A DNA stretch of 64,000 bases from assembly GCA_900065925.1 (NCBI GenBank), contig LN890280.1:62001-126000 (forward strand), read 5' to 3'. Shown piece by piece: positions 29,927 to 43,766 of the stretch (position 1 is the stretch's first letter; each line of letters begins with the position of its first letter). The notes beneath the pieces were generated by a model. The model made no database searches, had not been told where the DNA came from, and was given only the letters and a program-made list of their open reading frames with translations. Both the position numbers and the translations under genes were made by a program. This DNA is from Nitrosotalea devaniterrae. Its GTDB lineage: Archaea; Thermoproteota; Nitrososphaeria; Nitrososphaerales; Nitrosopumilaceae.

Positions 29927-30328
29927 TTGGCTACATTCAAGCTAAACATATCTGACAAGAAGGGAAAGACCATCACCAAAGAGGTAAAAGAAAAAGAGGC
30001 TGGACCATTTTTGGGTCTGACTGTTGGTGCTGAGCTTGATGCTGCATTGGTAGGAGAAGCAGGAAAACTGAAGATAACTGGTGGCAGCGACAAGTCAGGA
30101 GTTCCACTACGAGAAGACATTCACGGCGGTGCACGAAAATATATTTTATTATCAAAAGGTGTTGGATTACGAGATGCTGAAAAGGGACAACGAATTCGTA
30201 AACTTGTAAGAGGAAATACAATAACAGAAGAAGTTTATCAGTTAAACTGTTTTTTTGACGGAGAACTTAAAGTAGAAGAAAAACCAGCTGAAGTACAAGA
30301 AAAAGAATCTGCCGAGAAAAAGGCATAG
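29927..30328 (+). CDS. rps6e: 30S ribosomal protein S6e
   Basis: 133 residues, TTG start. FKLNISDKKGKTITKEV, LTVGAELDAALVG, KLKITGGSDKSGVPLREDIHGGARKYIL and the basic block GQRIRKLVRGNTITEE are diagnostic of S6e. The C-terminal 25 residues are a charged Glu/Lys tail. It is a small-subunit ribosomal protein. It is followed by the aIF2-gamma gene, the common archaeal arrangement, with 24 bases between. An AT-rich TTAATTAATA element about 30 bases upstream is a likely promoter. Confidence 0.97.
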   Translation: MATFKLNISDKKGKTITKEVKEKEAGPFLGLTVGAELDAALVGEAGKLKITGGSDKSGVPLREDIHGGARKYILLSKGVGLRDAEKGQRIRKLVRGNTITEEVYQLNCFFDGELKVEEKPAEVQEKESAEKKA

Positions 30329-30352
30329 GTTAACATATTAGCTTTTCTTAGC

Positions 30353-31624
30353 TTGTACGTGCACTGGAAAGAGACTCTTCCTGATTGGTATGTAAAAAAA
30401 TATGGATACCAACCGTGTGTTAACATTGGAACTGCAGGTCATGTTGATCATGGAAAAACTACTCTAATCCAAGCTTTGACTGGTGTGTGGACTAGTGCGC
30501 ACAGTGAAGAACTCAAACGAGGAATTACAATAAAAGTTGGATATGCAGATGCCGCATTTTACAAATGTAAAAGCTGTGAAGTTCCATTGGGTTACTCTGT
30601 AACACCAAAATGTAACAATTGTGGAAAGGAAAGTGAATTATCACGTGTTGTCAGTTTTGTAGATAGTCCTGGCCATGAAAGTCTAATGGCAAACATGTTG
30701 TCAGGATCTGCTCTGATAGATGGAGCCATGCTTCTTGTGGCAGCCAATGAAAAGGTTCCACAGCCACAGACCAAGGAACATCTTCTTGCCTTGCAAACAC
30801 TTGGGATAAAGCAAGTTGTTATTGTTCAAAATAAAGTCGATTTGATATCTTATGAACAAGCCATGGAAAATTATGCCGATATTGTAAAATTTGTCAAGGG
30901 AACAAGTGCTGCAAAAGCCCCAATCATTCCAATCTCTGCTCAATCAAAATTAAATATTGATGCACTAATAGGTGCAATTGAAACTTCGATACCCACTCCT
31001 GAACGTGATGACAAAAAAGATACTGTTATGCATGTACTAAGATCATTTGACATCAACAAGCCTGGAACCAAAATTAAAGACATCAAAGGCGGAGTTATTG
31101 GAGGCAGCATCATACAAGGAATATTCAAGGCGGGAGATGAAATTGAGATAAAACCTGGTTTACCTAATGAAAAAACTGGAAAATATGAATCAATTTTCAC
31201 AGAGATTGCATCTCTTGGAACTGGTGCAGGTATAGTAAAGGAAGTAAAAGCTGGTGGATTGATTGCACTTGCAACCAAACTTGATCCTGCCATGACCAGA
31301 AGTGATTCTCTTATAGGCTCTGTAATAGGCAAGCCCGGTACACTACCAGAAAATTCTTACAATGCAAAAATTGAGGTAAATCTATTTGATACTGCGGTGG
31401 GCTCTGGTGAAGAAATAAAAGTCTCAGCAATACAAACAGGTGAATCCTTGAGACTCAGTCTTGGAACTGCTCCGCTATTGTCCAAGGTAACAAGTGTTAG
31501 GGGTAAGACCGTGGAGTTACAGTTCAAAAGACCTGTGTGTATTTTTGAGAACAGCAAGGTGGCAATAAGTCGAAGAATTTCTGAGCGTTGGAGACTAATT
31601 GGTGCTGGTGTATCAAGTGGTTAA
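30353..31624 (+). CDS. eif2g: Translation initiation factor aIF2 subunit gamma
   Basis: 423 residues, TTG start. P-loop GHVDHGKTT (about residues 29-37), switch region RGITIKVGYADA, a zinc knuckle with CKSC and CNNC (about 67-86), G3 VDSPGHE, and G4 NKVDL. This is the GTPase core of aIF2, which brings initiator Met-tRNA to the small ribosomal subunit. Domains II and III follow with typical IIQGIFKAGDEIEIKPG and the C-terminal RISERWRLIGAG. The 3' end overlaps the start of a PIN-domain gene by eight bases. Confidence 0.97.
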   Translation: MYVHWKETLPDWYVKKYGYQPCVNIGTAGHVDHGKTTLIQALTGVWTSAHSEELKRGITIKVGYADAAFYKCKSCEVPLGYSVTPKCNNCGKESELSRVVSFVDSPGHESLMANMLSGSALIDGAMLLVAANEKVPQPQTKEHLLALQTLGIKQVVIVQNKVDLISYEQAMENYADIVKFVKGTSAAKAPIIPISAQSKLNIDALIGAIETSIPTPERDDKKDTVMHVLRSFDINKPGTKIKDIKGGVIGGSIIQGIFKAGDEIEIKPGLPNEKTGKYESIFTEIASLGTGAGIVKEVKAGGLIALATKLDPAMTRSDSLIGSVIGKPGTLPENSYNAKIEVNLFDTAVGSGEEIKVSAIQTGESLRLSLGTAPLLSKVTSVRGKTVELQFKRPVCIFENSKVAISRRISERWRLIGAGVSSG

Positions 31625-32017: not shown

Positions 32018-32674
32018 ATGTTTGAATACAAGGGAGTAAAGATACAATGGCTTGGTCATGATTCTTTTAGTCTTGTTGGTAATGTCAAAATCATAATTGA
32101 TCCATACAAGATAACAAAACAAGAAAAAGCAGACTTGATTTTAGTTTCACACAATCATTTTGATCATCTAAGTGTGGATGACCTAAAAAATGTCTCAACA
32201 GGGAATACGATTATTGTAGCTGCAACAGAATGCATAGACCTGCTCAAAGGATTTGCCTTTAAAGAAAAAATTGGCATTTCTCCAGGACAGGAAAAGACCA
32301 TTTTGGGAATCAAGATAAAATCCATTCCAGCATATAATCTGGATAAAATAAATCCAGATACCAAGAAACCATTTCATCCAAAAGAGGACAATAAGATTGG
32401 TTTTCTATTTGAATTAAACGGTATCACAATATATCATACTGGTGATACTGATCTAATTCCAGACATGTCTGATCTGAAACCTGACATTGCACTTGTGCCT
32501 GTAAGCGGGACATATGTGATGACAGCACAGGAGGCTGCCAAAGCAATAGAAAAGATCAAGCCAAAGATTGCAATTCCAATGCATTATGGAGTGATTGTTG
32601 GTAGTGAGAAAGATGCCCATGATTTTAAACAACTAGTAAAATCCTGTGAGGTTCAAATACTCACAAAAGAGTAA
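32018..32674 (+). CDS. UPF0173-type metal-dependent hydrolase (metallo-beta-lactamase fold)
   Basis: 218 residues. Metal-binding motif LVSHNHFDHLS (about 48-58), followed by HTGDTDLIPD (Asp/His ligand) and a C-terminal PMHYGVIVG. These match the UlaG-like/UPF0173 branch of the metallo-beta-lactamase superfamily. Substrate unknown. Complete, ATG start, 24 bases downstream of the broken PIN gene and 31 bases ahead of the STT3 gene, so it may be in a common transcript. Confidence 0.9.
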   Translation: MFEYKGVKIQWLGHDSFSLVGNVKIIIDPYKITKQEKADLILVSHNHFDHLSVDDLKNVSTGNTIIVAATECIDLLKGFAFKEKIGISPGQEKTILGIKIKSIPAYNLDKINPDTKKPFHPKEDNKIGFLFELNGITIYHTGDTDLIPDMSDLKPDIALVPVSGTYVMTAQEAAKAIEKIKPKIAIPMHYGVIVGSEKDAHDFKQLVKSCEVQILTKE

Positions 32675-32704: not shown

Positions 32705-35503
32705 TTGATTCAAGATGCCAAACTGTTTTCTGTAAGAAAATTTGATTTTCATTTGAGACATCTTCTAGTAATTGGAATCCTTATAGTTTCATTTTCAATT
32801 TCTGCCATGGTTCGATCCCAAGCCGCTGACTATGGATTTCAACTAAATGAGTTTGACCCGTTTTTTAATTTTAGGGCAACACAGTATCTACTAGATCATG
32901 GACTAAACGCATATGTTCATTGGCATGATGATATGAGTTGGTATCCCACTGGAAGAGATGTTTTTGCCACAGCTCAAGTACCGTTGCATGTCACTGATGC
33001 AGTTTTATACAAAATATTTGGTGGCGGAATGAGTCTTTATGATTTTACTATCATATTTCCAGTAGTTTTCGGTTCCATGACTGCCATAGTCATATTTGCA
33101 TTGGTGCGTGTCTTGGGGGGTACTAGTGCAGGACTCTTTGCTTCACTTTTCTTTGCGTTATCGCCTCCAATCATAGTAAGAGGAACAATTGGATGGTTCA
33201 AGTCGGAACCTTTAGGTTTGTTTTATGGATTATTGGGAGTCTATCTGTTTCTAAGTGGACTTAAATCAGAAAATAAAAAAATTGCTATAGCCAAGTTAAT
33301 TGGCGGTGGATTTTTCCTTGCTACAGGTTTTGCATCTTGGGGTGGAATAGAATTCTTCTTACTTCCTCTTGGCATGTTCTTTGTTGCTTTGCCTTTCATA
33401 CGAAAAGATCACAAGTTCTTACTCTGGGCAGTTCCATTGTTTGTAGCTGTAACCATGATAGTTGCTGGAGGATTATTTGCAAGACCTGGTCCAGCCTTTG
33501 TGTTTGGAGTAAGAGGATTTGCATTGATTGGCCCTGCCATATTGCTTGTAGTGATAGTTTTCATTCAAAAATATAGCAAGGAACAACACCGTTTGCGTAA
33601 CAGCCTGCTGGTCTTGGCTGCTCTGATAATAATAGGTGGATTAGTTCTGTCTTCTGGTGCTTTCCATTCAGTAAGTTTCCGTTATCTTAATGCTGTAAAT
33701 CCATTCCTAACTTCTGAGGATCCTCTGGTTGACTCAGTTGCAGAACATGCTACTCCAACACTTGCACAAAACTTTAGTTATTTCTCGATATTGATGCTAT
33801 TTGCAGGACTTGGAATTTGGCTTGCATTTAGAAAAAAGAATGGCGATTCAAATGCATCAAGATTTTCTCTTAGAAATGAGATGCTTGTGTTTGCTCTGAT
33901 AATAGGCATAGTCGGTGCATATGCTGGATCAACTTTCTCTAGATTGGAATTGTTGACTGCAACTTCTGTAATCATACTTTCATCTATTGGTCTTGCTATA
34001 CTTACTGCAGATGTTTTCAAACGCCAAAACAATCAGGTCAAATTCATAGAATCATCAAAAAAAGGATCAAGTTCAAAGAAGGAAATTCCTACAAAGAAAA
34101 CTAATGAATTACTTGGAAGGATTCCAAAGATAGCATTTGTTGCAGTAGTTGTTGCATTATTACTGGTTCCAACTCTATATCCCGTAGATGCTAACTGGAT
34201 TTCCATAACAAAATCTCCACCAACAATTCTTAACGGAGGATCAAATTTTGCCATCTCTACTAGTGACTGGCCCGATGCACTAAACTGGATTAAAACTAAT
34301 ACTCCAAAAGACTCTGTAGTTGCCTCTTGGTGGGATTATGGCTATTGGGTACAGACTCTGGGAGAAAGAAAGACACTTGCTGACAACGCTACAATCGATA
34401 CAGCTGTCATAGCAAACATTGCGCGAATGCTCATGGCTTCTCCTGATGAGGCATGGAAGATGTTAAACAAGGCGGGTGCAAACTATGTTCTAGTTTATGT
34501 TGTAGGCCAAAAGTTTGTCTCAAACGGTCAAGACCTTTACATACTTGGAGGAGGAGGAGATGAAAGCAAAAAACAATGGTTTATAAAAATAGGGGGCCTT
34601 GATTCAACCAAATTCCTTCAAGATGATTCCTTTACACCAACTGACTATTTCTGGAAAAACACTCTGCTTGGGCAAATGTTTCCATTTACCCCCCTAACGT
34701 ACTTTGATCCAAATACCCATAATGAATCACCTACTTATGCTACAGGATATACTGCAATTTACTCTAAAACCATCAAGTATGATGCAAACAGCAATGGACC
34801 TCTACGTCTAGTGTATTCGTCTCCAAGCTTGGACAGAAAAGACTCGGGTGTGTTTTCAGGAGTATTAATCTATCAAGTAAATCCAGATTACAAATCCTCG
34901 ACAACATCAACAACCGCTCCTTCTAATACCTCACAGGGAAATAGTTCAAGTACAACTATCCTAAAACCTACAACAACCACAACACCTAGTGGCGGAAACA
35001 TTGCGGTGATAAGTACAAAGTTTGGAGATATCAAATTTAGATTGTTTGATGATGTAGCACCAAAAACAACAGCTAACTTTATCAAACTTGCCAATTCTGG
35101 TTTCTATGACAAGACTATATTCCATAGAATAATGCCAGGGTTTGTGATACAGGGTGGTGACCCCAATACGATAAAAGGTGACAGAAGTACATGGGGTCTT
35201 GGGGATGCAGGATATACAATTCCACCAGAATTTAGCTCTACTTTGAATTTCACAAAGTACATGGTCGGTATGGCCCGCGGTAATGACGTTAACAGTGGAA
35301 GCTCTCAATTCTTCATCACAACTGGTGATGCACCTTGGTTGAATGATCAGTACACTCTGTTTGGCGAAGTTGTATCTGGTCAAGATGTTGTAGATAAAAT
35401 TGCATCACTGAAAACTGATCCAACTACTAACCAACCGGTAGATGCTGAGACTGCACGTGTATCTACAATTACCATAGAATCATCTAACAGTACTGCAAAA
35501 TAA
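32705..35503 (+). CDS. aglB: Oligosaccharyltransferase STT3/AglB fused to a C-terminal cyclophilin domain
   Basis: 932 residues, TTG start. Residues 25-480 are polytopic (about thirteen helices). The first exterior loop has the metal-binding EFDPFFNFRATQYL, and the catalytic C-terminal region has WWDYGYW at 542-548. This is the enzyme that transfers lipid-linked glycans to Asn of N-x-S/T sequons. After a Thr/Ser-rich linker (about 728-762) comes a complete peptidyl-prolyl isomerase of the cyclophilin family: FHRIMPGFVIQGGDP, MVGMARG, SSQFFITTGDAPWLNDQYTLFGEV. The isomerase would face outside the cell with the STT3 catalytic domain. Many sequon-rich surface proteins in this window are plausible substrates. 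The fusion is within one uninterrupted frame. Confidence 0.93.
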   Translation: MIQDAKLFSVRKFDFHLRHLLVIGILIVSFSISAMVRSQAADYGFQLNEFDPFFNFRATQYLLDHGLNAYVHWHDDMSWYPTGRDVFATAQVPLHVTDAVLYKIFGGGMSLYDFTIIFPVVFGSMTAIVIFALVRVLGGTSAGLFASLFFALSPPIIVRGTIGWFKSEPLGLFYGLLGVYLFLSGLKSENKKIAIAKLIGGGFFLATGFASWGGIEFFLLPLGMFFVALPFIRKDHKFLLWAVPLFVAVTMIVAGGLFARPGPAFVFGVRGFALIGPAILLVVIVFIQKYSKEQHRLRNSLLVLAALIIIGGLVLSSGAFHSVSFRYLNAVNPFLTSEDPLVDSVAEHATPTLAQNFSYFSILMLFAGLGIWLAFRKKNGDSNASRFSLRNEMLVFALIIGIVGAYAGSTFSRLELLTATSVIILSSIGLAILTADVFKRQNNQVKFIESSKKGSSSKKEIPTKKTNELLGRIPKIAFVAVVVALLLVPTLYPVDANWISITKSPPTILNGGSNFAISTSDWPDALNWIKTNTPKDSVVASWWDYGYWVQTLGERKTLADNATIDTAVIANIARMLMASPDEAWKMLNKAGANYVLVYVVGQKFVSNGQDLYILGGGGDESKKQWFIKIGGLDSTKFLQDDSFTPTDYFWKNTLLGQMFPFTPLTYFDPNTHNESPTYATGYTAIYSKTIKYDANSNGPLRLVYSSPSLDRKDSGVFSGVLIYQVNPDYKSSTTSTTAPSNTSQGNSSSTTILKPTTTTTPSGGNIAVISTKFGDIKFRLFDDVAPKTTANFIKLANSGFYDKTIFHRIMPGFVIQGGDPNTIKGDRSTWGLGDAGYTIPPEFSSTLNFTKYMVGMARGNDVNSGSSQFFITTGDAPWLNDQYTLFGEVVSGQDVVDKIASLKTDPTTNQPVDAETARVSTITIESSNSTAK

Positions 35504-35669: not shown

Positions 35670-36467
35670 TTAACCTTCTCTTGTCTTCTTTGATTCTTCT
35701 CTTGTGAACTTGAAGGTACCACCCTTTTTTTCTATGGCATCCTGAACAGCAGAAAGAATCGGCTTGAGTTCCTTTTCAGCCTCCTTGAAATTTGGAGCAG
35801 TAAGGGTAATGCGGTATTTGGGAGCACCAATGTATGTAACAGAGATCTCCTTCTTGTTTGCAGTTGAATCAATTAATGCAGACTTGATTATCTCAATTCC
35901 ATTTGATTTGTTGCAGGTAATCTCAAAAATACCGCGTATCTCAACGTGAGGAACCTGAATCTTGGAACCCAGTTCTGCAATTACAGTTAATGCCTTTGGA
36001 GGAATACTGAGATTATCTAAAATGGATATACCCTTGGCAGAAACTTCAGAAAATGCATCATAGACTGAGCCAAATTTTTCCACTAGGACATTTTCTAGTT
36101 TTCCCATTTCGGACTCGGTCAAACTGATGCGAGACTTTAGATTCTCAATTAGTGCTTCTTCTTTTTCACCGCGTTTTATCTCTAAAAGCTTCTTCTTTTT
36201 TTGATCAGATGATACCTGTTTTAATGACAAATCTATTTCGGATCTTCGTGGGTCTACACGTTTTACAAGTAAGACTTTTTTTTCTCCTACCTTGAGAAAT
36301 TTTGCTACGTTTCTTATCCAGCCGGTAGCAATTTCTGATACATGCAAGAACCCCTGAATCTTGTTGAACTCATCAAGTGAGACATATGCTCCTTGATCCA
36401 CTATCCTTGTTACTGTAGCAATCACAATCTCTCCCACCTCTGGAAAATCTTGTACAGTAGTCGTCAT
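35670..36467 (-). CDS. eif2a: Translation initiation factor aIF2 subunit alpha
   Basis: 265 residues from ATG at 36467 (TTG three codons upstream is also open). N-terminal S1 domain: GEIVIATVTRIVDQGAYVSLDEF, GFLHVSEIATGWIRNV, KKVLLVKRVDPRRSEIDLSLK. A helical middle and a C-terminal alpha-beta domain follow (EIRGIFEITC, VTYIGAPKYRITLTAPNFKEAE). It forms aIF2 with beta and gamma; gamma is encoded 4 kb away. First gene of the aIF2-alpha-nop10 operon. Confidence 0.96.
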   Translation of the reverse strand: MTTTVQDFPEVGEIVIATVTRIVDQGAYVSLDEFNKIQGFLHVSEIATGWIRNVAKFLKVGEKKVLLVKRVDPRRSEIDLSLKQVSSDQKKKKLLEIKRGEKEEALIENLKSRISLTESEMGKLENVLVEKFGSVYDAFSEVSAKGISILDNLSIPPKALTVIAELGSKIQVPHVEIRGIFEITCNKSNGIEIIKSALIDSTANKKEISVTYIGAPKYRITLTAPNFKEAEKELKPILSAVQDAIEKKGGTFKFTREESKKTREG

Positions 36468-36505
36468 GGCTTTCAAATTTATTGTACATAATTTAATGTT
36501 GTTGC

Positions 36506-37036
36506 CTAAAAGTCGATTCCTTTTTTTGCTTTTATTCCGGATTTGAATGGATGTTTTATTTCTCTCATTTCTGTAACTAGGTCTGCTTTTTCTATTACTT
36601 CGTCCTTGGCATGATTTCCTGTTAGGACCAAGTTGACATCATCTGGTTTGTTTGCAATAATTTCCAAGACATCTTTTAGATTTATCAGGCCAAGATTTAC
36701 TGCATAATTTATCTCATCAAGTATCACAATGTTGTATATCTTTGAATTGATTTTTTCCTCTGCAACTTTTAGTGCCTCCTCTGCAACTTTTTTATGATCT
36801 TCAATGGGACTTTTGTCATCTAATATTCCAACAAAACCCTTGCCAATTGCCGTGAGTTCAAACTCTGGCTCTAGTCTCTTTGATGATGTCATCTCACCAT
36901 AATGCCATGAGCCCTTGATGAATTGTATCATGCAAACTTTATGATCATAGCCAATTGCACGAAGCGCCATTCCAAGAGCTGCTGTTGTCTTTCCCTTTCC
37001 CTTTCCTGTGTATACTATTACTAGTCCCTTTGTCAT
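36506..37036 (-). CDS. cobO: Cob(I)alamin adenosyltransferase, CobO/BtuR type
   Basis: 176 residues, ATG start. The N-terminal P-loop YTGKGKGKTTAALGMALRA binds ATP; KVCMIQFIKGSWHYGE and the acidic IVILDEINYAVNLG block are typical of BtuR/CobO. It transfers the 5'-deoxyadenosyl group of ATP to the cobalt of reduced corrinoids. Separated from the divergent flavoprotein gene by a 107-base promoter region, so both likely respond to the same local control. It opens the main cobalamin locus of the window. Confidence 0.95.
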   Translation of the reverse strand: MTKGLVIVYTGKGKGKTTAALGMALRAIGYDHKVCMIQFIKGSWHYGEMTSSKRLEPEFELTAIGKGFVGILDDKSPIEDHKKVAEEALKVAEEKINSKIYNIVILDEINYAVNLGLINLKDVLEIIANKPDDVNLVLTGNHAKDEVIEKADLVTEMREIKHPFKSGIKAKKGIDF

Positions 37037-37104
37037 TGGGAATATTTTTTTGTGCGCTAGGTAAAAAGATTGGGTTCAAAAACAAGGGCTTGGCAAAACC
37101 ACAG

Positions 37105-37114
37105 CTTATAATAT
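37105..37114 (+). promoter_or_regulatory. Putative TATA box for the flavoprotein-cbiA operon
   Basis: CTTATAATAT lies 30-39 bases upstream of the ATG at 37144, in the only gap between divergent cobO and the flavoprotein gene. Assigned by motif and spacing. I see no obvious cobalamin riboswitch fold in the 107-base gap, which would be short for one. Confidence 0.45.
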
Positions 37115-37143
37115 TGAACAAGGAAAATTTGAGTAATAATATT

Positions 37144-38367
37144 ATGGCTAAAAATTATGATTATGATGTAGTCGTTGTGGGGGGAGGTCCAGCAGGTCTG
37201 TCAGCGGCATGGGGTGCTGCAAAAAAAGGCCTCAGTGTTGCAGTGCTTGAAAGGGATGAAGCAATAGGACAAAATGTTAGGACAAGCGGTGTAACATGGA
37301 TAAAGGAGGCAAAATCATTTGGAATACCGTCAGAGTACTATAACGAAATAAGCAACTATGCATTTTACTCTCCAAATAATTATGTAATAAAAAAAAGTGA
37401 TACGGCACAAGCTGCCATCTTGGATGTGCGAAAGACATACCAGTTTCTTGCGTATCAGGCCGCAAGTGTGGGAGCAGACATTTTTTTAAGAACTAGTGCA
37501 ACTGATGCGATAAAAAATGACAAGGGAAAACTAGGCGGGGTAAAGGCAACATCTCTTAAAGAAGAACTGGTTTTTAATTCAAAACTTGTCATTGACGCAA
37601 GCGGTTTCTATTCTATTGTTGGAAGATCTCTTGGAATTGTTATGCCGTGGAAAAGATTTGGAGCAGGTGCAGAGTATGAGGCCTATGTGGATAAAGTCAG
37701 CCCTGATACGTGGTATCTTATGGTGGGCTCGCAGTACTCTCCTGCGGGATATGCATGGATTTTTCCTTTAGGAAAAAATAAGGTTCGCATAGGAGTGGGA
37801 GTTGGAAAACCCAATTCGCAGGCAGATGCAAGCAAACTCTTGATTGAGTTGCTTGAAAAAAGACCAAAACCACTAGATGATCTTGGCAGAATTGTTCCAA
37901 TTGAGTTTCATTACGGTCTGATTCCAAATGAAGGACTCAGGCAGTCAACCATTGATGACAATCTCATAATGGTGGGAGATTCTGCAGGACAGGCAAACCC
38001 CTTGGTTCTGGAGGGAATAAGATATGCAATTGAATTTGGCAGAGCAGCGGGAAAAATTGGTGGCGAGTCTGTACTCCAAGGAGATACATCCAAAGAATCT
38101 CTGAAATCATACGAGCAAACCATGAAAAAAGCAATAGGATCAAAGATAGCAGCTGCAGTAAAGGTGCAGTATAGGTGGTTGGATCTAAGTGATCAGGAAT
38201 GGGACAAGGAACTTGAAATAATAGACGAACTCTCTGCTGAAGAATTTCTTGATTTTATCAAAGCAGATTTTGGCATGACAAGCATGTTAAAACTTGCAGC
38301 ACATCATCCAAAACTTGCACTTCGACAACTTTTTCAAATTATAAAAAATACTGACAAAGAGACATGA
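37144..38367 (+). CDS. Geranylgeranyl-reductase-family FAD flavoprotein within the cobalamin locus
   Basis: 407 residues from ATG 37144; a longer frame from 36955 overlaps divergent cobO and has no family features, so it is rejected. N-terminal dinucleotide fold VVVVGGGPAGLSAAWGAAK with acidic strand end VLERDE, then DASGFYSIVGR and the FAD-binding GDSAGQANPLVLEGIRYAIE typical of the geranylgeranyl reductase family. Known archaeal members saturate isoprenoid chains of lipids. Here, however, the stop overlaps the cbiA start by four bases (ATGA), making it translationally coupled to cobyrinate a,c-diamide synthase. A role in corrinoid reduction is therefore possible; lipid reduction cannot be excluded. 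Confidence 0.85.
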   Translation: MAKNYDYDVVVVGGGPAGLSAAWGAAKKGLSVAVLERDEAIGQNVRTSGVTWIKEAKSFGIPSEYYNEISNYAFYSPNNYVIKKSDTAQAAILDVRKTYQFLAYQAASVGADIFLRTSATDAIKNDKGKLGGVKATSLKEELVFNSKLVIDASGFYSIVGRSLGIVMPWKRFGAGAEYEAYVDKVSPDTWYLMVGSQYSPAGYAWIFPLGKNKVRIGVGVGKPNSQADASKLLIELLEKRPKPLDDLGRIVPIEFHYGLIPNEGLRQSTIDDNLIMVGDSAGQANPLVLEGIRYAIEFGRAAGKIGGESVLQGDTSKESLKSYEQTMKKAIGSKIAAAVKVQYRWLDLSDQEWDKELEIIDELSAEEFLDFIKADFGMTSMLKLAAHHPKLALRQLFQIIKNTDKET

Positions 38368-39719
38368 AGATTCCAAGAATTGTTCTTGCTGGTGCTACAA
38401 GTGGAGTAGGCAAGACATCTATAACATCTGCAATAATCCATGGTCTAAAGGAAAAGGGGTACTCTGTCCAGCCGTTCAAAGTAGGGCCTGATTTTATAGA
38501 TCCGAGTTACCTCAGCGCTGTCTCAGGAAGCATTGCACGCAACCTTGATGTTTGGATGATGGGGAAAAATAGAGTACTAAAGAATTTTGTCCAAAATTCA
38601 CGCCAAGACATTTCTGTAATTGAGGGTGTAATGGGGTATTATGATGGGTTTAGTGGAAGATCAAGTTTTGCAAGTACCTATGATGTTGCAAACATAACAA
38701 AATCTGGTGTAATCCTTGTCTTGGATGCAAGCAAGGCAGCTCGCTCTATTGCTGCAACTGCACTTGGATTCAAAAATTTTGAGAAAAACTCTAGGATTTG
38801 CGGCATTATACTAAATAAGATCGGGAGCAAAAAGCATGAAACCCTATGCAGAGATGCGCTAAAAAAAGTGGGACTTCCAATATTTGGGGTCATCCCAAGG
38901 AATAATGATCTTAATCTTGAATCAAGACACCTTGGCTTGATACCTATACGAGAACAGCAATCACTTGATGAAAAAATCAAGTCTATTGCAAGATCACTCT
39001 CAGGTTTTATCGAAATTGAAAAAATAATCAAACTTGCCAATAATACCTCTGATCTGCCGCAAGTTCCTGACACAAAAGACAGGAAGATAAAAACCAGAAT
39101 AGCGGTAGCCATGGATGAGTCCTTTAATTTCTATTATCAGGACAACCTCGACTCGCTAAGAAGGCTTGGTGCAGAAATTGTATTTTTCAGTCCAGTCTCA
39201 GATAAGAAAATACCACCATGTGATGGAATCTACATTGGCGGTGGATTCCCAGAAGTCAAGGCAAGTCTTCTCCAGAAAAATGACGCCATGAAAAAACTTG
39301 TAAAAAAATATGCCCAAGATGGTCTGCCAATTTATGCCGAATGTGGAGGGCTGATGTATCTGACAAAATCCATAAGTTACAAGTCTGGAAAATTCAAGAT
39401 GGTAGGTCTTTTTGATGCTGTCACTGTGATGGAAAAGAAACTAAAACTAAATTATACAAGTGCAAAGATTAGGTCGAACTCTCCTTTTTCCTTGCAATTA
39501 AAAACTATCAAGGGCCATGAGTTTCATTATTCTGAACTGGATTTGTTGTCAAAAGATTCAAGATTTGCATATGACATGTCAATTGGTATTGGTATCAAAG
39601 ATAAAAAAGATGGCCTGACCATACACAATACACTTGCATCATACATGCATGTTCACTTTGATAGCTCACCTATTGCTGACAACTTTGTAAAATCATGTAT
39701 TTCTTATTCAAGAAAATAA
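38364..39719 (+). CDS. cbiA: Cobyrinate a,c-diamide synthase
   Basis: 451 residues, ATG in an ATGA overlap with the upstream flavoprotein. N-terminal ATP-binding GATSGVGKTSITSAII (about residues 9-24) and PFKVGPDFIDPSYL; C-terminal class I glutamine-amidotransferase-like domain with the nucleophile in IYAECGGLMYL (about 323-333) and His in a MHVHFDSS block near the end. The enzyme amidates side chains a and c of cobyrinate using glutamine and ATP. Meets cbiC on the other strand with a single base between the stops. Confidence 0.95.
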   Translation: MKIPRIVLAGATSGVGKTSITSAIIHGLKEKGYSVQPFKVGPDFIDPSYLSAVSGSIARNLDVWMMGKNRVLKNFVQNSRQDISVIEGVMGYYDGFSGRSSFASTYDVANITKSGVILVLDASKAARSIAATALGFKNFEKNSRICGIILNKIGSKKHETLCRDALKKVGLPIFGVIPRNNDLNLESRHLGLIPIREQQSLDEKIKSIARSLSGFIEIEKIIKLANNTSDLPQVPDTKDRKIKTRIAVAMDESFNFYYQDNLDSLRRLGAEIVFFSPVSDKKIPPCDGIYIGGGFPEVKASLLQKNDAMKKLVKKYAQDGLPIYAECGGLMYLTKSISYKSGKFKMVGLFDAVTVMEKKLKLNYTSAKIRSNSPFSLQLKTIKGHEFHYSELDLLSKDSRFAYDMSIGIGIKDKKDGLTIHNTLASYMHVHFDSSPIADNFVKSCISYSRK

Positions 39720-39720
39720 T

Positions 39721-40356
39721 CTAGGGTTTTTTTGCTACAAGAATTTTGTAAAGTGCATTAACAATAGCAGAAGCACATGGACTGCCTCCTTTTCTTCCAA
39801 TGTTTGTAATGTATGGTACACTTGTGGCACGAAGCTCATCCTTTGACTCTACTGCGCAGACAAATCCAACTGGAATTCCAATCACAAGTGCAGGAGAGGT
39901 TATACCTTCTTTTATCATCTGTATCACCTCAATGAGTGCAGTAGGTGCATTGCCTATGGCTACTATTCCATTATCCATCTGTTTTGCCGCAAGTCTCATT
40001 GAAGTCTGGGCACGTGTCTTGTTGAGTTTTTTTGCTTCCTCTATTACTTGAGGATCTGATATGTCGCATATCACTTGGTTTCCAAATTTTTTCATGTTAT
40101 CCTTGTTAAAACCCCCTATGACACCATTGACATCAACTATGATGTTGCATCCTTTTTGTAATGCATCTATAGCACTCTGAATTGCGTCCTTGTGAAACAC
40201 TACCTTGTTTTCTCTTGCAAAGTCAAAATCTGCAGTGGAATGGATTATTCTTTTTACTATTGTCCACTCGTCAGGTGAATATGGGTGGGAGCCTATTTCA
40301 CTGTCTATTATCTCCATGCTCTTGTCCTCTATCGACTGGCCCTTTTGGGTAATCAT
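39721..40356 (-). CDS. cbiC: Cobalt-precorrin-8X methylmutase
   Basis: 211 residues, ATG start. IIHSTADFDFARENKVVFHKDAI holds the catalytic His of the CbiC/CobH family, followed by DVNGVIGGFNK and the conserved GNAPTALIEVIQM and GIPVGFVCAVESKDEL blocks. The enzyme shifts the methyl group from C11 to C12 to give cobyrinate. Last gene of the minus-strand operon cbiD-cbiG-cbiX-cbiC, overlapping the cbiX stop by four bases. Confidence 0.96.
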   Translation of the reverse strand: MITQKGQSIEDKSMEIIDSEIGSHPYSPDEWTIVKRIIHSTADFDFARENKVVFHKDAIQSAIDALQKGCNIIVDVNGVIGGFNKDNMKKFGNQVICDISDPQVIEEAKKLNKTRAQTSMRLAAKQMDNGIVAIGNAPTALIEVIQMIKEGITSPALVIGIPVGFVCAVESKDELRATSVPYITNIGRKGGSPCASAIVNALYKILVAKKP

Positions 40357-41099
40357 GTCTCTACTTCCTGAGCTCTCTCAATGATAAGGTCTATCATCTT
40401 CTGATCAGTTCCTATGTGCTGTGTAATCAAAACTTTTTTCAATTTGTGTTTCTCTAATGCTGGCCTAAGATCTGCATTGATATCTGTTTTTACATGTGCA
40501 CCCTCGTGTAAAAAGTAAAAGACAACCACCAAAACCTCTGGATCTCTTTTCTTGCAGGCCTCTATTCCTTGTTCTATGTTTGGCTCTTCGATCTCAAGAA
40601 AACAATAATCTACATTTCTATACAAATGGCCAAGCTCATCTGTTACATATTTTATTGACATTTTTGCATTAGGATCTTTGCTTCCATGTCCAATTACCAA
40701 GACATCTATCTTGTCATTTGTCAATGAAACTCCGCCTTTATCCAGTGCTGACTTGATCCTGCTTTCAACTAGTCTCACAAGGGTCATGTGCATTGACATG
40801 GGTTTTGTTACAAGAAACTTGACATTTGTTGTTGCTTGGTATTTCATGACCTCTGTAACTGCAGCCTTTACTTTTTTCCCTGGATACAAAAAGTATGGAA
40901 CTATGGTAAGAGAATCAATGTTGCTTTTTAGGCACTTTTGAATTCCATCATCAATGTATGGTAGTGTCACTTCTAGAAAACAATACTCTGCAAAATCATA
41001 ACTACCCTTAGTTTTTACTGCCTTGCAAATAATTTCAAGCTCTTCAGCAGCCTCTCTTTCCTTACTTCCTCTGTCTATTAGCAACAGTCCACGCTTCAA
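40353..41099 (-). CDS. cbiX: Sirohydrochlorin cobaltochelatase, two-domain CbiX with degenerate N-terminal half
   Basis: 248 residues made of two CbiX-like halves, unlike the 120-145-residue single-domain archaeal CbiXS. The second half keeps the metal-site motifs VLVIGHGSKDPNAK (about 133-146) and VVVFYFLHEGAHVKTDI (about 202-218). In the first half the equivalent positions read LLLIDRGSKERE (His to Arg) and VPYFLYPGKKVK (both His lost), so only the C-terminal half seems able to bind cobalt. It inserts Co(II) into sirohydrochlorin at the start of the early-cobalt pathway. No C-terminal Fe-S Cys motif is present. Both ends overlap neighbours by four bases. Confidence 0.9.
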   Translation of the reverse strand: MKRGLLLIDRGSKEREAAEELEIICKAVKTKGSYDFAEYCFLEVTLPYIDDGIQKCLKSNIDSLTIVPYFLYPGKKVKAAVTEVMKYQATTNVKFLVTKPMSMHMTLVRLVESRIKSALDKGGVSLTNDKIDVLVIGHGSKDPNAKMSIKYVTDELGHLYRNVDYCFLEIEEPNIEQGIEACKKRDPEVLVVVFYFLHEGAHVKTDINADLRPALEKHKLKKVLITQHIGTDQKMIDLIIERAQEVET

Positions 41100-42160
41100 T
41101 TTGATCTCCTTGCTATTGCAATTGTAAGGTTTGGAGGAAATTTGTGTTTTTGTACAATCAGCTCTCCTCCAGAAGCCTTGATTGCAGCAGCCTCTGACAC
41201 ACTTGGTGTGCCCTCAAATGTCTGTACAACATCTGAAGGGTTGGGTGTGGTTATGACAGAAAGGTCTATTTTGTCAAAATATTCTAGCGGCACCTTCATC
41301 TCCACTGATAATTCCTGAAGTCCCTTCACATCAGCTTCTTTTTTAATTGATGCAAATTTTGCAACTGATCTTGGACTAATCTTGAATTTTGAAAGGCAGA
41401 AATTCATTCCTTCTTTGATTGTATCCTTTGTGGTATCCCAGTGCAAGCCCACTCCCACAACTAGTGTCTTTGGTCTGTAAATGACAACACGGCCCTGGAT
41501 CTCGTTATTTTCTATTATTTTATCAGAAATGATGAGAAATCCCTTACAGTCAGATGTTATCATCTCATCAAATGATTTGTAAATGTGGACATTTTTTGGG
41601 AGCTCTTTTTTAGGCATCCACCAATCTTTCTCTCCAGCGTCTTGGAAAACACCAATTTTTTCTTCGTTTACCATAAACGCGCTAACTTTTGTTACACTGG
41701 AGATTTCATCAATGCTCCAGTCAAATTCTCTTCCAAGAAGGTCAACTGCAATTGTCTTGTTTACATCTGCTGCTGTAGTGATAACTGCAGTTGCACCAAG
41801 GGTTGAAGCTATTTTTTCTGCAAGCTCGTTTGCACCTCCCAGATGACCTGAGAGGGTGCTTATGACAAATTTTGCAGTGTCATCTATGACTACTATTGCA
41901 GGGTCTGTCTTTTTGTCCTTCATGTGCGGTGCAATCAATCGTATAACTGCACCAAGGGAAAAAATGCATACTAGTGCCTCATTGTTTTCAAATAATTCTT
42001 TTACTTTTAGAGTGGTTGACTCGTCAAACCATACAATATCTTTTCCCTCTTGGTGGAGCTTTAATGGGGAAAATATCTTCCATGCTGGAAAGTGTTGTTT
42101 GAGTAAATGTGCTGTATCAATACCGTTTTTTGTTATTGCAAGTATGGCTACGTTATCCAC
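41096..42160 (-). CDS. cbiG: Cobalt-precorrin-5A hydrolase
   Basis: 354 residues. N-terminal and central CbiG domains include IFSLGAVIRLIAPHMKDKKTDPAIVVID and FVISTLSGHLGGANELAEKIA, the family hallmark. The C-terminal region VVGVGLHWDTTKDTIKEG and SPRSVAKFASIKKE matches the CbiG/CobE domain. The enzyme opens the lactone of cobalt-precorrin-5A and expels the C20 fragment as acetaldehyde. Second gene of the operon: 12 bases after cbiD, and overlapping cbiX by four bases. Confidence 0.95.
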   Translation of the reverse strand: MDNVAILAITKNGIDTAHLLKQHFPAWKIFSPLKLHQEGKDIVWFDESTTLKVKELFENNEALVCIFSLGAVIRLIAPHMKDKKTDPAIVVIDDTAKFVISTLSGHLGGANELAEKIASTLGATAVITTAADVNKTIAVDLLGREFDWSIDEISSVTKVSAFMVNEEKIGVFQDAGEKDWWMPKKELPKNVHIYKSFDEMITSDCKGFLIISDKIIENNEIQGRVVIYRPKTLVVGVGLHWDTTKDTIKEGMNFCLSKFKISPRSVAKFASIKKEADVKGLQELSVEMKVPLEYFDKIDLSVITTPNPSDVVQTFEGTPSVSEAAAIKASGGELIVQKHKFPPNLTIAIARRSN

Positions 42161-42172
42161 AAAATTATCTTT

Positions 42173-43288
42173 CTAGGTCTCAAGATATTTGTTACTCTTT
42201 GGAAAGATTCCGATTACCTTACCGTCAAAGTCAAACATGATAACCTCAATCTCAAACTTGTTGTCAGAATATTTTCCAAGTTGCTTGTGGGCCTCTGAGC
42301 AGACCATATCAAAATAGCCAGAAATGTTTTTTTCATTTATTATTTCAAATACGTGTCTTGCAGTGTTTGCCTTTCTTATGGTATCCTGTACTTGTTGCGA
42401 GGCGCCGCACTTTTTTGCCAATTCTGACAAAAACTCCATGTCAACCTTTGAGCCCTTTACGTGGGTCTGCTTTACGCCCATTGACATCTTTGCAAGCTTT
42501 CCTATGAATCCTGCAACGTATGCCTTCTTGATTCCCTTTTTTGCACAGACCTGAACTGTATACCCTGAAAAGTCTCCCATCTGGACAAAACAGTGATCCG
42601 GCAGGTCAATTATCTTCCTGGTAAAGTCTTCGCTTCTTCCTCCTGTTGTCAAGACAACAGTATCGTCACCCATTGCCCTTGTAACCTCGATGCTTTGCCT
42701 AATTGATGCTGCAAAAGATGCTGTAGAATATGGTACTACTATACCACTTGTTCCTAGAATTGAAATGCCTCCAATGATTCCAAGCCTTGGATTGTCTGTT
42801 TTGATAGCAAGTTCTCTTCCCTTTGGGACAGATATTATCACCTTGATTCCATTTTTTGCAAGAAGATCTTTTGCTATCTCCAAAATGTTTTCTCTGATCA
42901 TTTTTTTCGGTGTTGGGTTTATTGCAGCAGATCCTATCTCTAGCCCCAGTCCGGGTTTAGTAACTCTGCCAACTCCCTCTGCACCGTCAATTTCGATCTC
43001 TCCTGGTTTTTCAGTTAGTGTAACTTGTGTTACTATCTCTGCACCATGAGTTACATCTGGATCATCTCCGCCATCTTTTATCACTGTGCACGTAGCATTG
43101 ATTTTATCAAACTTACAATCTTCAATTTTTATCTGAATCTGTGATTTTTTTGGTAGTGTAACATCAACAAAATCTGTTTTATTTTGATTTATCATTGAAA
43201 GCAGTGCAGCCTTTGCGCCAGCTGTTGCACAGGTTCCTGTGGTAAAACCCATCCTCATCTTTTCATTTGGCTTGTCTTCTTCTGACAT
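42173..43288 (-). CDS. cbiD: Cobalt-precorrin-5B C1-methyltransferase
   Basis: 371 residues from ATG 43288. The frame continues upstream for another 102 codons, but that extension lies inside the J-domain gene in a different frame and lacks family similarity, so it is excluded. Markers: MRMGFTTGTCATAGAKAAL, VIKDGGDDPDVTHGAEI, GVGRVTKPGL, and GGRSEDFTRK. CbiD methylates C1 in the anaerobic pathway. First cobalamin gene in this operon, 37 bases downstream of the J-domain gene, which may share its transcript. Confidence 0.96.
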   Translation of the reverse strand: MSEEDKPNEKMRMGFTTGTCATAGAKAALLSMINQNKTDFVDVTLPKKSQIQIKIEDCKFDKINATCTVIKDGGDDPDVTHGAEIVTQVTLTEKPGEIEIDGAEGVGRVTKPGLGLEIGSAAINPTPKKMIRENILEIAKDLLAKNGIKVIISVPKGRELAIKTDNPRLGIIGGISILGTSGIVVPYSTASFAASIRQSIEVTRAMGDDTVVLTTGGRSEDFTRKIIDLPDHCFVQMGDFSGYTVQVCAKKGIKKAYVAGFIGKLAKMSMGVKQTHVKGSKVDMEFLSELAKKCGASQQVQDTIRKANTARHVFEIINEKNISGYFDMVCSEAHKQLGKYSDNKFEIEVIMFDFDGKVIGIFPKSNKYLET

Positions 43289-43325
43289 GAAATGACTTAA
43301 CTTCTTGCGTATTAATCCCTTAAGA

Positions 43326-43766
43326 TTATTTGAGTATGGTTGATAGAATAATCCAGAGAGCCATGGCTCCAAGCCCGCCATAAAGTATGATGTGAGTGAG
43401 CATCGGGGAACCTTCCTTTTCCTGATTGTGCTCGTAATTTTGTTCTGCCTTGGCTCCAAAATCACGTCTAAACTCTGCAAAGTTTGGACCAAAATGAAAC
43501 TCTTCATTTGGAGTCTTGTCATATTTTTTCCAAAAGTCAGAATATTTTGTGGCCACTTCACTTTCTGAAATCTTGTCCCTTTTCTTTTCCTCACTTCTTA
43601 ACTGCTGATATGCCTCTGATACCTTCTTGAATCGTGATCCGTCACTATCGTCCTTGTTCCTATCTGGATGATATTTCAAGGAAAGCTGTCTGTATGCATT
43701 TTTTATCTCCTTTTGGGATGCTCCTGCTTGGACGCCTAAGATCTGGTGACAGTCTGCTGTGTTCAA
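43326..43766 (-). CDS. J-domain protein with C-terminal membrane anchor
   Basis: 146 residues. Residues 4-65 form a J domain with the diagnostic HPD in LKYHPDRNKDDSDG (about 33-35) and a TTG or nearby start. No Gly/Phe region, zinc domain or client-binding domain of DnaJ follows. Instead there is a charged linker and a terminal hydrophobic helix (THIILYGGLGAMALWIILST), so it is probably tail-anchored with the J domain in the cytoplasm, where it could recruit an Hsp70 to the membrane. It precedes cbiD on the same strand. Confidence 0.85.
   Translation of the reverse strand: MNTADCHQILGVQAGASQKEIKNAYRQLSLKYHPDRNKDDSDGSRFKKVSEAYQQLRSEEKKRDKISESEVATKYSDFWKKYDKTPNEEFHFGPNFAEFRRDFGAKAEQNYEHNQEKEGSPMLTHIILYGGLGAMALWIILSTILK

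What the first reader, a model, noticed from the sequence alone, without database searches (positions are those of the whole stretch)
32705..35503. STT3/AglB oligosaccharyltransferase fused to an exterior cyclophilin
Seen: one continuous 932-residue frame encodes the polytopic STT3 with EFDP loop and WWDYG motif, a Thr/Ser-rich linker, then a complete cyclophilin with GFVIQGGDP and SSQFFI. Known: N-glycosylation occurs on the exterior face and proline isomerisation can limit sequon access. Inference: the fused isomerase could present Asn-x-Ser/Thr-Pro-rich substrates to the catalytic site or help fold glycoproteins. I am not aware of a characterised enzyme of this architecture.
Basis: partly seen in the sequence, partly recalled or inferred. 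Interest (0 to 1): 0.72.

Follow-up and report, generated by a model that had tools for sequence, protein, structure and literature searches.

The report
Glycosyltransferase fused to external proline isomerase
In most soil and freshwater ammonia-oxidising archaea sampled, the membrane enzyme that attaches sugars to proteins outside the cell carries a built-in protein-folding enzyme (a cyclophilin) on a flexible tail; the two-in-one gene is real, ancient and conserved, and I found no description of it in the open literature I could search.

Summary
Confirmed. Window 32705-35503 is one uninterrupted 932-codon frame: a 13-helix STT3/AglB oligosaccharyltransferase, a disordered Ser/Thr-rich linker (about residues 734-762) and a complete cyclophilin (766-925). 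It is the only STT3 gene in a complete 1.8-Mb Nitrosotalea genome. It is not an artefact: the same fusion, in a conserved gene neighbourhood, occurs in all Nitrosotalea examined, Nitrosotenuis-like genera, at least 36 of 47 Nitrososphaeraceae and two further families, all with amoA where tested. amoA-negative relatives have unfused STT3 and separate, mostly membrane-anchored cyclophilins. Nitrosopumilus-like genera keep the locus without the cyclophilin; there an exterior cyclophilin rides on a PsbP-like protein. Trees, locus and orphan linkers fit one early fusion with several losses (moderate support). The isomerase domain is under purifying selection like STT3 and keeps the catalytic Arg, Phe and Gln; the 'His' is Tyr, as in nearly all archaeal relatives compared. 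Best reading: an exterior prolyl isomerase tethered flexibly at the glycosylation site, helping newly exported proteins fold. Presentation of proline-rich sequons is possible but unshown. New variant of a known kind.

The parts
32705..35503 (+). whole fusion gene, STT3/AglB-linker-cyclophilin, 932 aa, TTG start
   Evidence: 938-codon stop-to-stop frame in the complete genome
32705..34903 (+). STT3/AglB oligosaccharyltransferase part (residues 1-733): 13 predicted membrane helices, then the exterior C-terminal domain
   Evidence: Pfam STT3 and STT3-PglB_core; human STT3A E 3e-52; Foldseek to OST-A/OST-B chains, TMt 0.73-0.79; hydropathy and charged loops
32849..32860 (+). EFDP (residues 49-52), first acidic motif in exterior loop 1; invariant in a 31-sequence alignment
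33734..33745 (+). SVAE (residues 344-347) in exterior loop 5, equivalent of the SVSE/TIXE motif; S344 and E347 invariant
34328..34342 (+). WWDYG signature (residues 542-546), invariant
34904..34990 (+). flexible Ser/Thr-rich linker (about residues 734-762), with sequons at N741 and N746
   Evidence: pLDDT 26-39; variable in length and sequence among relatives; sequons
35000..35479 (+). cyclophilin-type peptidyl-prolyl isomerase domain (residues 766-925); active site R808, F813, Q816, A857, Q868, F870, W878, L879, Y883
   Evidence: Pfam PF00160 E 5.8e-46; active-site alignment; dN/dS about 0.05-0.21; Foldseek to cyclophilins
32018..32674 (+). upstream metallo-beta-lactamase-fold hydrolase; neighbour in fused genomes, not found in the four Nitrosopumilus-like loci where the block was located
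29927..31624 (+). ribosomal protein S6e and eIF2-gamma genes; conserved upstream context that marks the locus as orthologous
35670..36476 (-). eIF2-alpha gene, conserved downstream neighbour in Nitrosopumilaceae and in two outgroup loci

Best explanation
A genuine two-enzyme membrane protein. The STT3/AglB part takes a lipid-linked glycan and attaches it to Asn of N-x-S/T in proteins emerging on the outer face of the membrane. The cyclophilin hangs from the exterior C-terminal domain on a floppy linker (which itself holds sequons) and catalyses cis-trans isomerisation of Xaa-Pro bonds in the same newly exported proteins, so that folding and glycosylation of S-layer and other surface proteins happen at one site and the isomerase is not lost to the medium. 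Shown by sequence and model: fusion, completeness, predicted topology, active-site conservation, purifying selection, single locus, restriction to amoA-bearing lineages in the sample, absence in Nitrosopumilus-like genera. Inferred: isomerase activity, identity of clients, proximity to the Sec exit.
For: Both domains complete. A positively charged loop before the last helix and 13 helices place the C-terminus outside. Arg, Phe and Gln of the active site are kept in all fused proteins compared. dN/dS of the cyclophilin is about 0.05-0.13 in most close pairs (0.19 and 0.21 at the highest), like STT3. The same junction, with a variable disordered linker, occurs in all fused relatives. In genus g188 of Nitrososphaeraceae the fused copy is the only cyclophilin found in most genomes. 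Relatives without the fusion carry exterior cyclophilins on other membrane anchors: an N-terminal helix or a PsbP-like protein with C-terminal hydrophobic segments. A genome inferred from its size to be the experimentally glycosylated Ns. viennensis carries the fusion.
Against: No enzymatic assay or client data exist. An exterior cyclophilin on STT3 is not essential: Nitrosopumilus-like genera do without the fusion, and g192 seems to lack any exterior cyclophilin. Human FKBP11, an isomerase-family protein that sits at OST-A, is argued by its authors not to act as a nascent-chain isomerase there (PMC12804085), so proximity to OST does not prove isomerase use.
Confidence: 0.6

Rival explanations
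1. Anchor only: STT3 is simply a convenient membrane anchor that keeps an exterior cyclophilin at the cell surface; there is no functional coupling to glycosylation.
For: The same kind of cyclophilin is anchored by unrelated carriers in relatives: an N-terminal helix or PsbP-like proteins. The linker is long, variable and disordered.
Against: Fusion to the same partner is retained across several families, although simpler anchors were available; genomes with both fused and PsbP-type copies keep both.
Confidence: 0.22
2. Coupled catalysis: the isomerase sets the conformation of prolines near sequons, so raising occupancy of sites such as N-x-S/T-P.
For: Physical fusion to the catalytic subunit; purifying selection on both parts; one glycoproteomic contrast, glycosylated Ns. 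viennensis against no detected glycosylation in Np. piranensis (PMC12153357), which matches presence and absence of the fusion in the lineages concerned.
Against: No conserved linker or predicted orientation; the two-species contrast is confounded by low AglB abundance in Np. piranensis, as the paper itself says; not testable here.
Confidence: 0.12
3. The cyclophilin is a non-catalytic binding or scaffolding module that recruits substrates or partners to the transferase.
For: Human FKBP11 at OST-A appears to act as an adaptor with its nominal catalytic site buried (PMC12804085).
Against: The main catalytic residues are kept in the fused sequences across families.
Confidence: 0.05
4. Assembly or frameshift artefact joining two genes.
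For: None found. One fragmented MAG relative (L051) shows a split frame, as draft contigs sometimes do.
Against: The same joined frame occurs in many independent genomes, including complete single-contig ones.
Confidence: 0.01

Closest known systems
AglB of archaea (e.g. Archaeoglobus fulgidus AglB, PDB 3WAJ, 7E9S) and human STT3A/STT3B
   Same: 13-helix membrane core, EFDP and WWDYG motifs, exterior C-terminal core domain
   Different: No STT3/AglB/PglB chain among the listed solved structures is described with an isomerase domain. The model is closer to eukaryotic STT3 (TMt 0.73-0.79) than to A. fulgidus AglB (TMt about 0.5)
Prokaryotic and single-domain cyclophilins (E. coli PpiA/PpiB, PF00160)
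   Same: fold and the Arg, Phe, Gln, Phe active site; Tyr in place of His126 as in the stand-alone archaeal relatives compared
   Different: fused C-terminally to a glycosyltransferase through a disordered linker
PsbP-cyclophilin proteins of Nitrosopumilus-like genera (about 505-550 aa) and of genus g15 of Nitrososphaeraceae (about 450-485 aa)
   Same: exterior, apparently membrane-attached cyclophilin
   Different: carried by another protein, not by STT3: a PsbP-like domain in the Nitrosopumilus-like form (Pfam match); the g15 form has the cyclophilin at the other end and its PsbP resemblance is by eye only, without a Pfam match
Human FKBP11 at the OST-A secretory translocon (PMC12804085)
   Same: a prolyl-isomerase-family domain next to STT3 at the protein exit
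   Different: FKBP type, separate polypeptide, ribosome-binding; authors argue against an isomerase role there
STT3 proteins with C-terminal Ig-like (Big_3_5) domains in other Thermoproteota genomes (L124, L126)
   Same: extra exterior domain at the STT3 C-terminus
   Different: Ig-like, not enzymatic

Membership tests
STT3/AglB oligosaccharyltransferase (PF02516 with core PF21436) | family profile above curated cut-off | tested here: met
   90.4 bits against 24.5, and 28.1 against 23
STT3/AglB oligosaccharyltransferase (PF02516 with core PF21436) | acidic motif in exterior loop 1, WWDYG, SVSE-like loop-5 motif | tested here: met
   EFDP 49-52, WWDYG 542-546 and S344/E347 invariant among 31 sequences
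STT3/AglB oligosaccharyltransferase (PF02516 with core PF21436) | 13 membrane helices with exterior C-terminal domain | tested here: met
   model helices, hydropathy and positively charged loop before the last helix; prediction only
STT3/AglB oligosaccharyltransferase (PF02516 with core PF21436) | glycan transfer activity | not testable with these tools
   no assay; N-glycosylation reported for the Ns. viennensis proteome (PMC12153357)
TIGR04154 archaeosortase-associated STT3 | score above the model cut-off of 450 bits | tested here: not met
   119 bits
Cyclophilin-type prolyl isomerase (PF00160) | family profile above cut-off and complete domain | tested here: met
   157.1 bits against 21.7, profile 3-151 of 159
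Cyclophilin-type prolyl isomerase (PF00160) | catalytic Arg55, Phe60, Gln63, Phe113 (human CypA numbering) | tested here: met
   R808, F813, Q816, F870; Arg, Phe60 and Gln kept in all fused sequences compared, Phe113 replaced by Tyr in a few
Cyclophilin-type prolyl isomerase (PF00160) | His126 of CypA | tested here: not met
   Tyr883; Tyr also in almost all archaeal relatives compared; a feature of CypA-type members, not one that defines the family, so membership stands
Cyclophilin-type prolyl isomerase (PF00160) | isomerase activity | not testable with these tools
   no assay

The most novel reading that the evidence does not exclude
The ancestor of ammonia-oxidising archaea evolved a glycosyltransferase with a built-in prolyl isomerase that couples proline isomerisation to sequon glycosylation, a single-polypeptide counterpart of the chaperone-decorated OST translocon of eukaryotes; its loss in Nitrosopumilus-like lineages went with weakened N-glycosylation.
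Probability: 0.2. Interest if true: 0.78.

Novelty: new variant of a known kind. Interest (0 to 1): 0.58.

Why it matters
Whether prolyl isomerases act together with the oligosaccharyltransferase during export is an open question in cell biology. Here evolution has joined the two in one chain in a globally important group of archaea, in single-copy form, with natural losses in a sister group. That gives a clean comparative system (fused, unfused and carrier-swapped species) and an unusually simple protein on which the coupling can be tested biochemically.

Tried and rejected
Artefact or frameshift: rejected by conservation of the joined frame and locus. Independent fusions in Nitrosopumilaceae and Nitrososphaeraceae: considered because the first cyclophilin tree left deep forks open; with long branches removed the fused domains lie on one side of a branch (95/72), and the STT3 tree and shared locus agree, though support is moderate. 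Alternative groupings tested by AU (fused f1 plus PsbP of f1, p 0.33; fused f1 plus cytosolic f1, p 0.36) were not rejected, so the deep cyclophilin history stays unsure and independent fusions are not excluded. Cyclophilin pseudogenes behind unfused STT3 genes: none convincing, only orphan linkers. Extending the search to Asgard archaea with the genome tool was not possible. An orientation of the two active sites cannot be read from the model because the linker is disordered.

Full report
OBSERVATION. The frame 32705-35503 (+) starts with TTG, ends with TAA and has 932 codons without a stop. Only six codons lie between the start and the preceding in-frame stop (938-codon open frame), so no larger protein is missed. 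Pfam gives STT3 (E 2.3e-25), STT3-PglB core (3.2e-6) and a nearly full-length cyclophilin (E 5.8e-46, residues 768-911). The best solved relative of the first part is human STT3A (E 3e-52), and the last part matches dozens of cyclophilins. The window is part of a complete 1,805,304-base genome with one STT3 gene and one other cyclophilin, a 166-codon frame without an obvious signal sequence.

ANATOMY. The AlphaFold2 model (31-sequence alignment, mean pLDDT 76.6, pTM 0.67) has the STT3 membrane bundle, the exterior core domain, a linker at 733-762 with pLDDT 26-39, and the cyclophilin. Foldseek finds OST-A/OST-B STT3 chains (TMt 0.73-0.79) and, for the C-terminal part, cyclophilins (TMt about 0.8). 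Thirteen hydrophobic helices, a basic N-terminus and a loop with ten Lys/Arg before the last helix put the C-terminus outside. The helix at 86-105 is only weakly hydrophobic and I read it as part of exterior loop 1, as in solved STT3 structures (own knowledge). Pairwise dN/dS (Nei-Gojobori) of the cyclophilin is about 0.05-0.13 in most close pairs and 0.19-0.21 at most, about the same as STT3, so the domain is not decaying.

DISTRIBUTION. All eight Nitrosotalea genomes in the phylum sample, and genera g2, g5, g6 and g10 of the same family, have the fusion; genera g3, g4, g7, g8, g9, g11, g12 and g13 (Nitrosopumilus-like and others) have STT3 of about 710-785 aa without it. In Nitrososphaeraceae (f3; L066 is a named member) 36 of 47 genomes show the complete fusion, 3 show it in pieces, 3 lack the cyclophilin, 3 are too fragmentary and 2 show no STT3 (my count). 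One genome of family f2 (G431, 890 aa) and one of f67 (G398, 919 aa) also have it. amoA is present in every fused genome tested (G000, G287, G221, G431, G398) and also in tested unfused members of f1 and in STT3-less g14; it is absent from the tested genomes of f4, f68, f72, f73, f76 and f79, whose STT3 is unfused or, in G430 of f76, not found. Those genomes have their cyclophilins as separate proteins, mostly of 196-261 codons; the f76, f4 and one f68 sequence I read begin with a hydrophobic membrane anchor. So, within this sample, the fusion is found only in amoA-bearing lineages.

ONE ORIGIN, SEVERAL LOSSES. The gene sits in one locus: S6e, eIF2-gamma, hydrolase, STT3, with eIF2-alpha and cobA downstream in Nitrosopumilaceae. 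The S6e-eIF2-gamma-hydrolase-STT3 order recurs in f2 and in f3 genus g15, and four Nitrosopumilus-like genomes keep S6e, eIF2-gamma, STT3, eIF2-alpha and cobA but show no match to the hydrolase; in L114, L119 (unfused) and L141 (fused) no neighbour was matched. The STT3 tree puts fused f2 outside f3 and f1, fused f3 next, and fused and unfused f1 together; it needs 4 changes of state, consistent with one gain and several losses (quick method). In the cyclophilin tree without long branches the fused domains of f1 and f3 (with the second exterior cyclophilin of g15 nested among them) lie on one side of a branch with moderate support (95/72); alternative groupings are not rejected. Three unfused STT3 proteins still end in orphan Ser/Thr/Asn/Pro-rich tails like the linker (L229, L230, L023), which I read as footprints of loss. 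No cyclophilin relics were found downstream.

CARRIER SWAPPING. Nitrosopumilus-like genomes carry a secreted-looking protein of about 505-550 codons with a cyclophilin, a PsbP-like domain and C-terminal hydrophobic segments; Nitrososphaeraceae genus g15 has a 453-485-codon protein with a C-terminal cyclophilin closely related to that of its own STT3 and an upstream region that looks PsbP-like to the eye but gives no Pfam match. Fusion-bearing genera g2, g6 and g10 have both a fused and a 515-537-codon form. Exterior cyclophilins in this order are thus usually membrane-attached, with STT3 as one of several carriers. This is the main support for the anchor-only rival.

FUNCTION. Established: STT3/AglB transfers lipid-linked glycans to N-x-S/T on the exterior face; cyclophilins isomerise Xaa-Pro bonds. 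Inferred: here both act on the same emerging chains. The variable, disordered linker (9-91 residues) argues for a tethered foldase rather than a rigid catalytic relay. Published glycoproteomes show N-glycosylation in Ns. viennensis and none detectable in Np. piranensis (PMC12153357). A genome whose size (2,527,938 bases) matches what I remember for Ns. viennensis has the fusion (L232), and Nitrosopumilus-like genomes do not. That is one contrast, confounded by AglB abundance, and the strain identification is from memory. The paper does not mention an isomerase (0 occurrences). In human cells FKBP11 sits at OST-A, but its authors argue against isomerase use there (PMC12804085).

NOVELTY. Full-text searches for AglB/STT3/oligosaccharyltransferase with cyclophilin or prolyl isomerase in archaea found nothing relevant. 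The library lacks most subscription papers, and domain databases probably list the architecture, so 'undescribed' is a limited claim. I rate it a new variant of a known kind.

Noticed in passing
genomes G192, G251, G268, G346, G437, G442 (family f2, genus g14): Six genomes of an amoA-bearing genus (Nitrosocaldus by inference; amoA tested in three of them) have no detectable STT3 by profile or by protein search, and no cyclophilin in those checked: possible complete loss of N-glycosylation.
   Followed up: partly
G342, G354, G378 (genus g7) and G499, G523 (genus g195): Single genomes, 92-99% complete, with no STT3 by profile; real loss or assembly gap not settled.
   Followed up: partly
L128, L131 (cyclophilin first) and L134, L135, L136 (cyclophilin last): A second exterior cyclophilin protein: with a PsbP domain in Nitrosopumilus-like genomes, and with the cyclophilin at the other end in Nitrososphaeraceae g15, where it is closely related to the STT3-borne one of the same genus, suggesting domain copying or gene conversion.
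   Followed up: partly
L124, L126: STT3 proteins of other Thermoproteota with C-terminal bacterial Ig-like (Big_3_5) domains.
   Followed up: no
L229, L230 (genus g192), L023 (genus g11): STT3 proteins ending in an orphan Ser/Thr/Asn/Pro-rich tail without cyclophilin.
   Followed up: yes
32018-32674: Metallo-beta-lactamase-fold hydrolase gene next to STT3 in fused genomes; no match in the four Nitrosopumilus-like loci where the surrounding block was located, so it may have been lost along with the cyclophilin.
   Followed up: partly
32705-34903 (STT3 part) against PDB: Model and sequence resemble eukaryotic STT3A/B more than Archaeoglobus AglB.
   Followed up: no
36506-43594: Corrinoid adenosyltransferase (CobA/BtuR) and CbiA-like genes identified by Pfam (36506-37036, 38364-39719); the frames beyond, to 43594, look from their sequences like further cobalamin-synthesis genes.
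   Followed up: no
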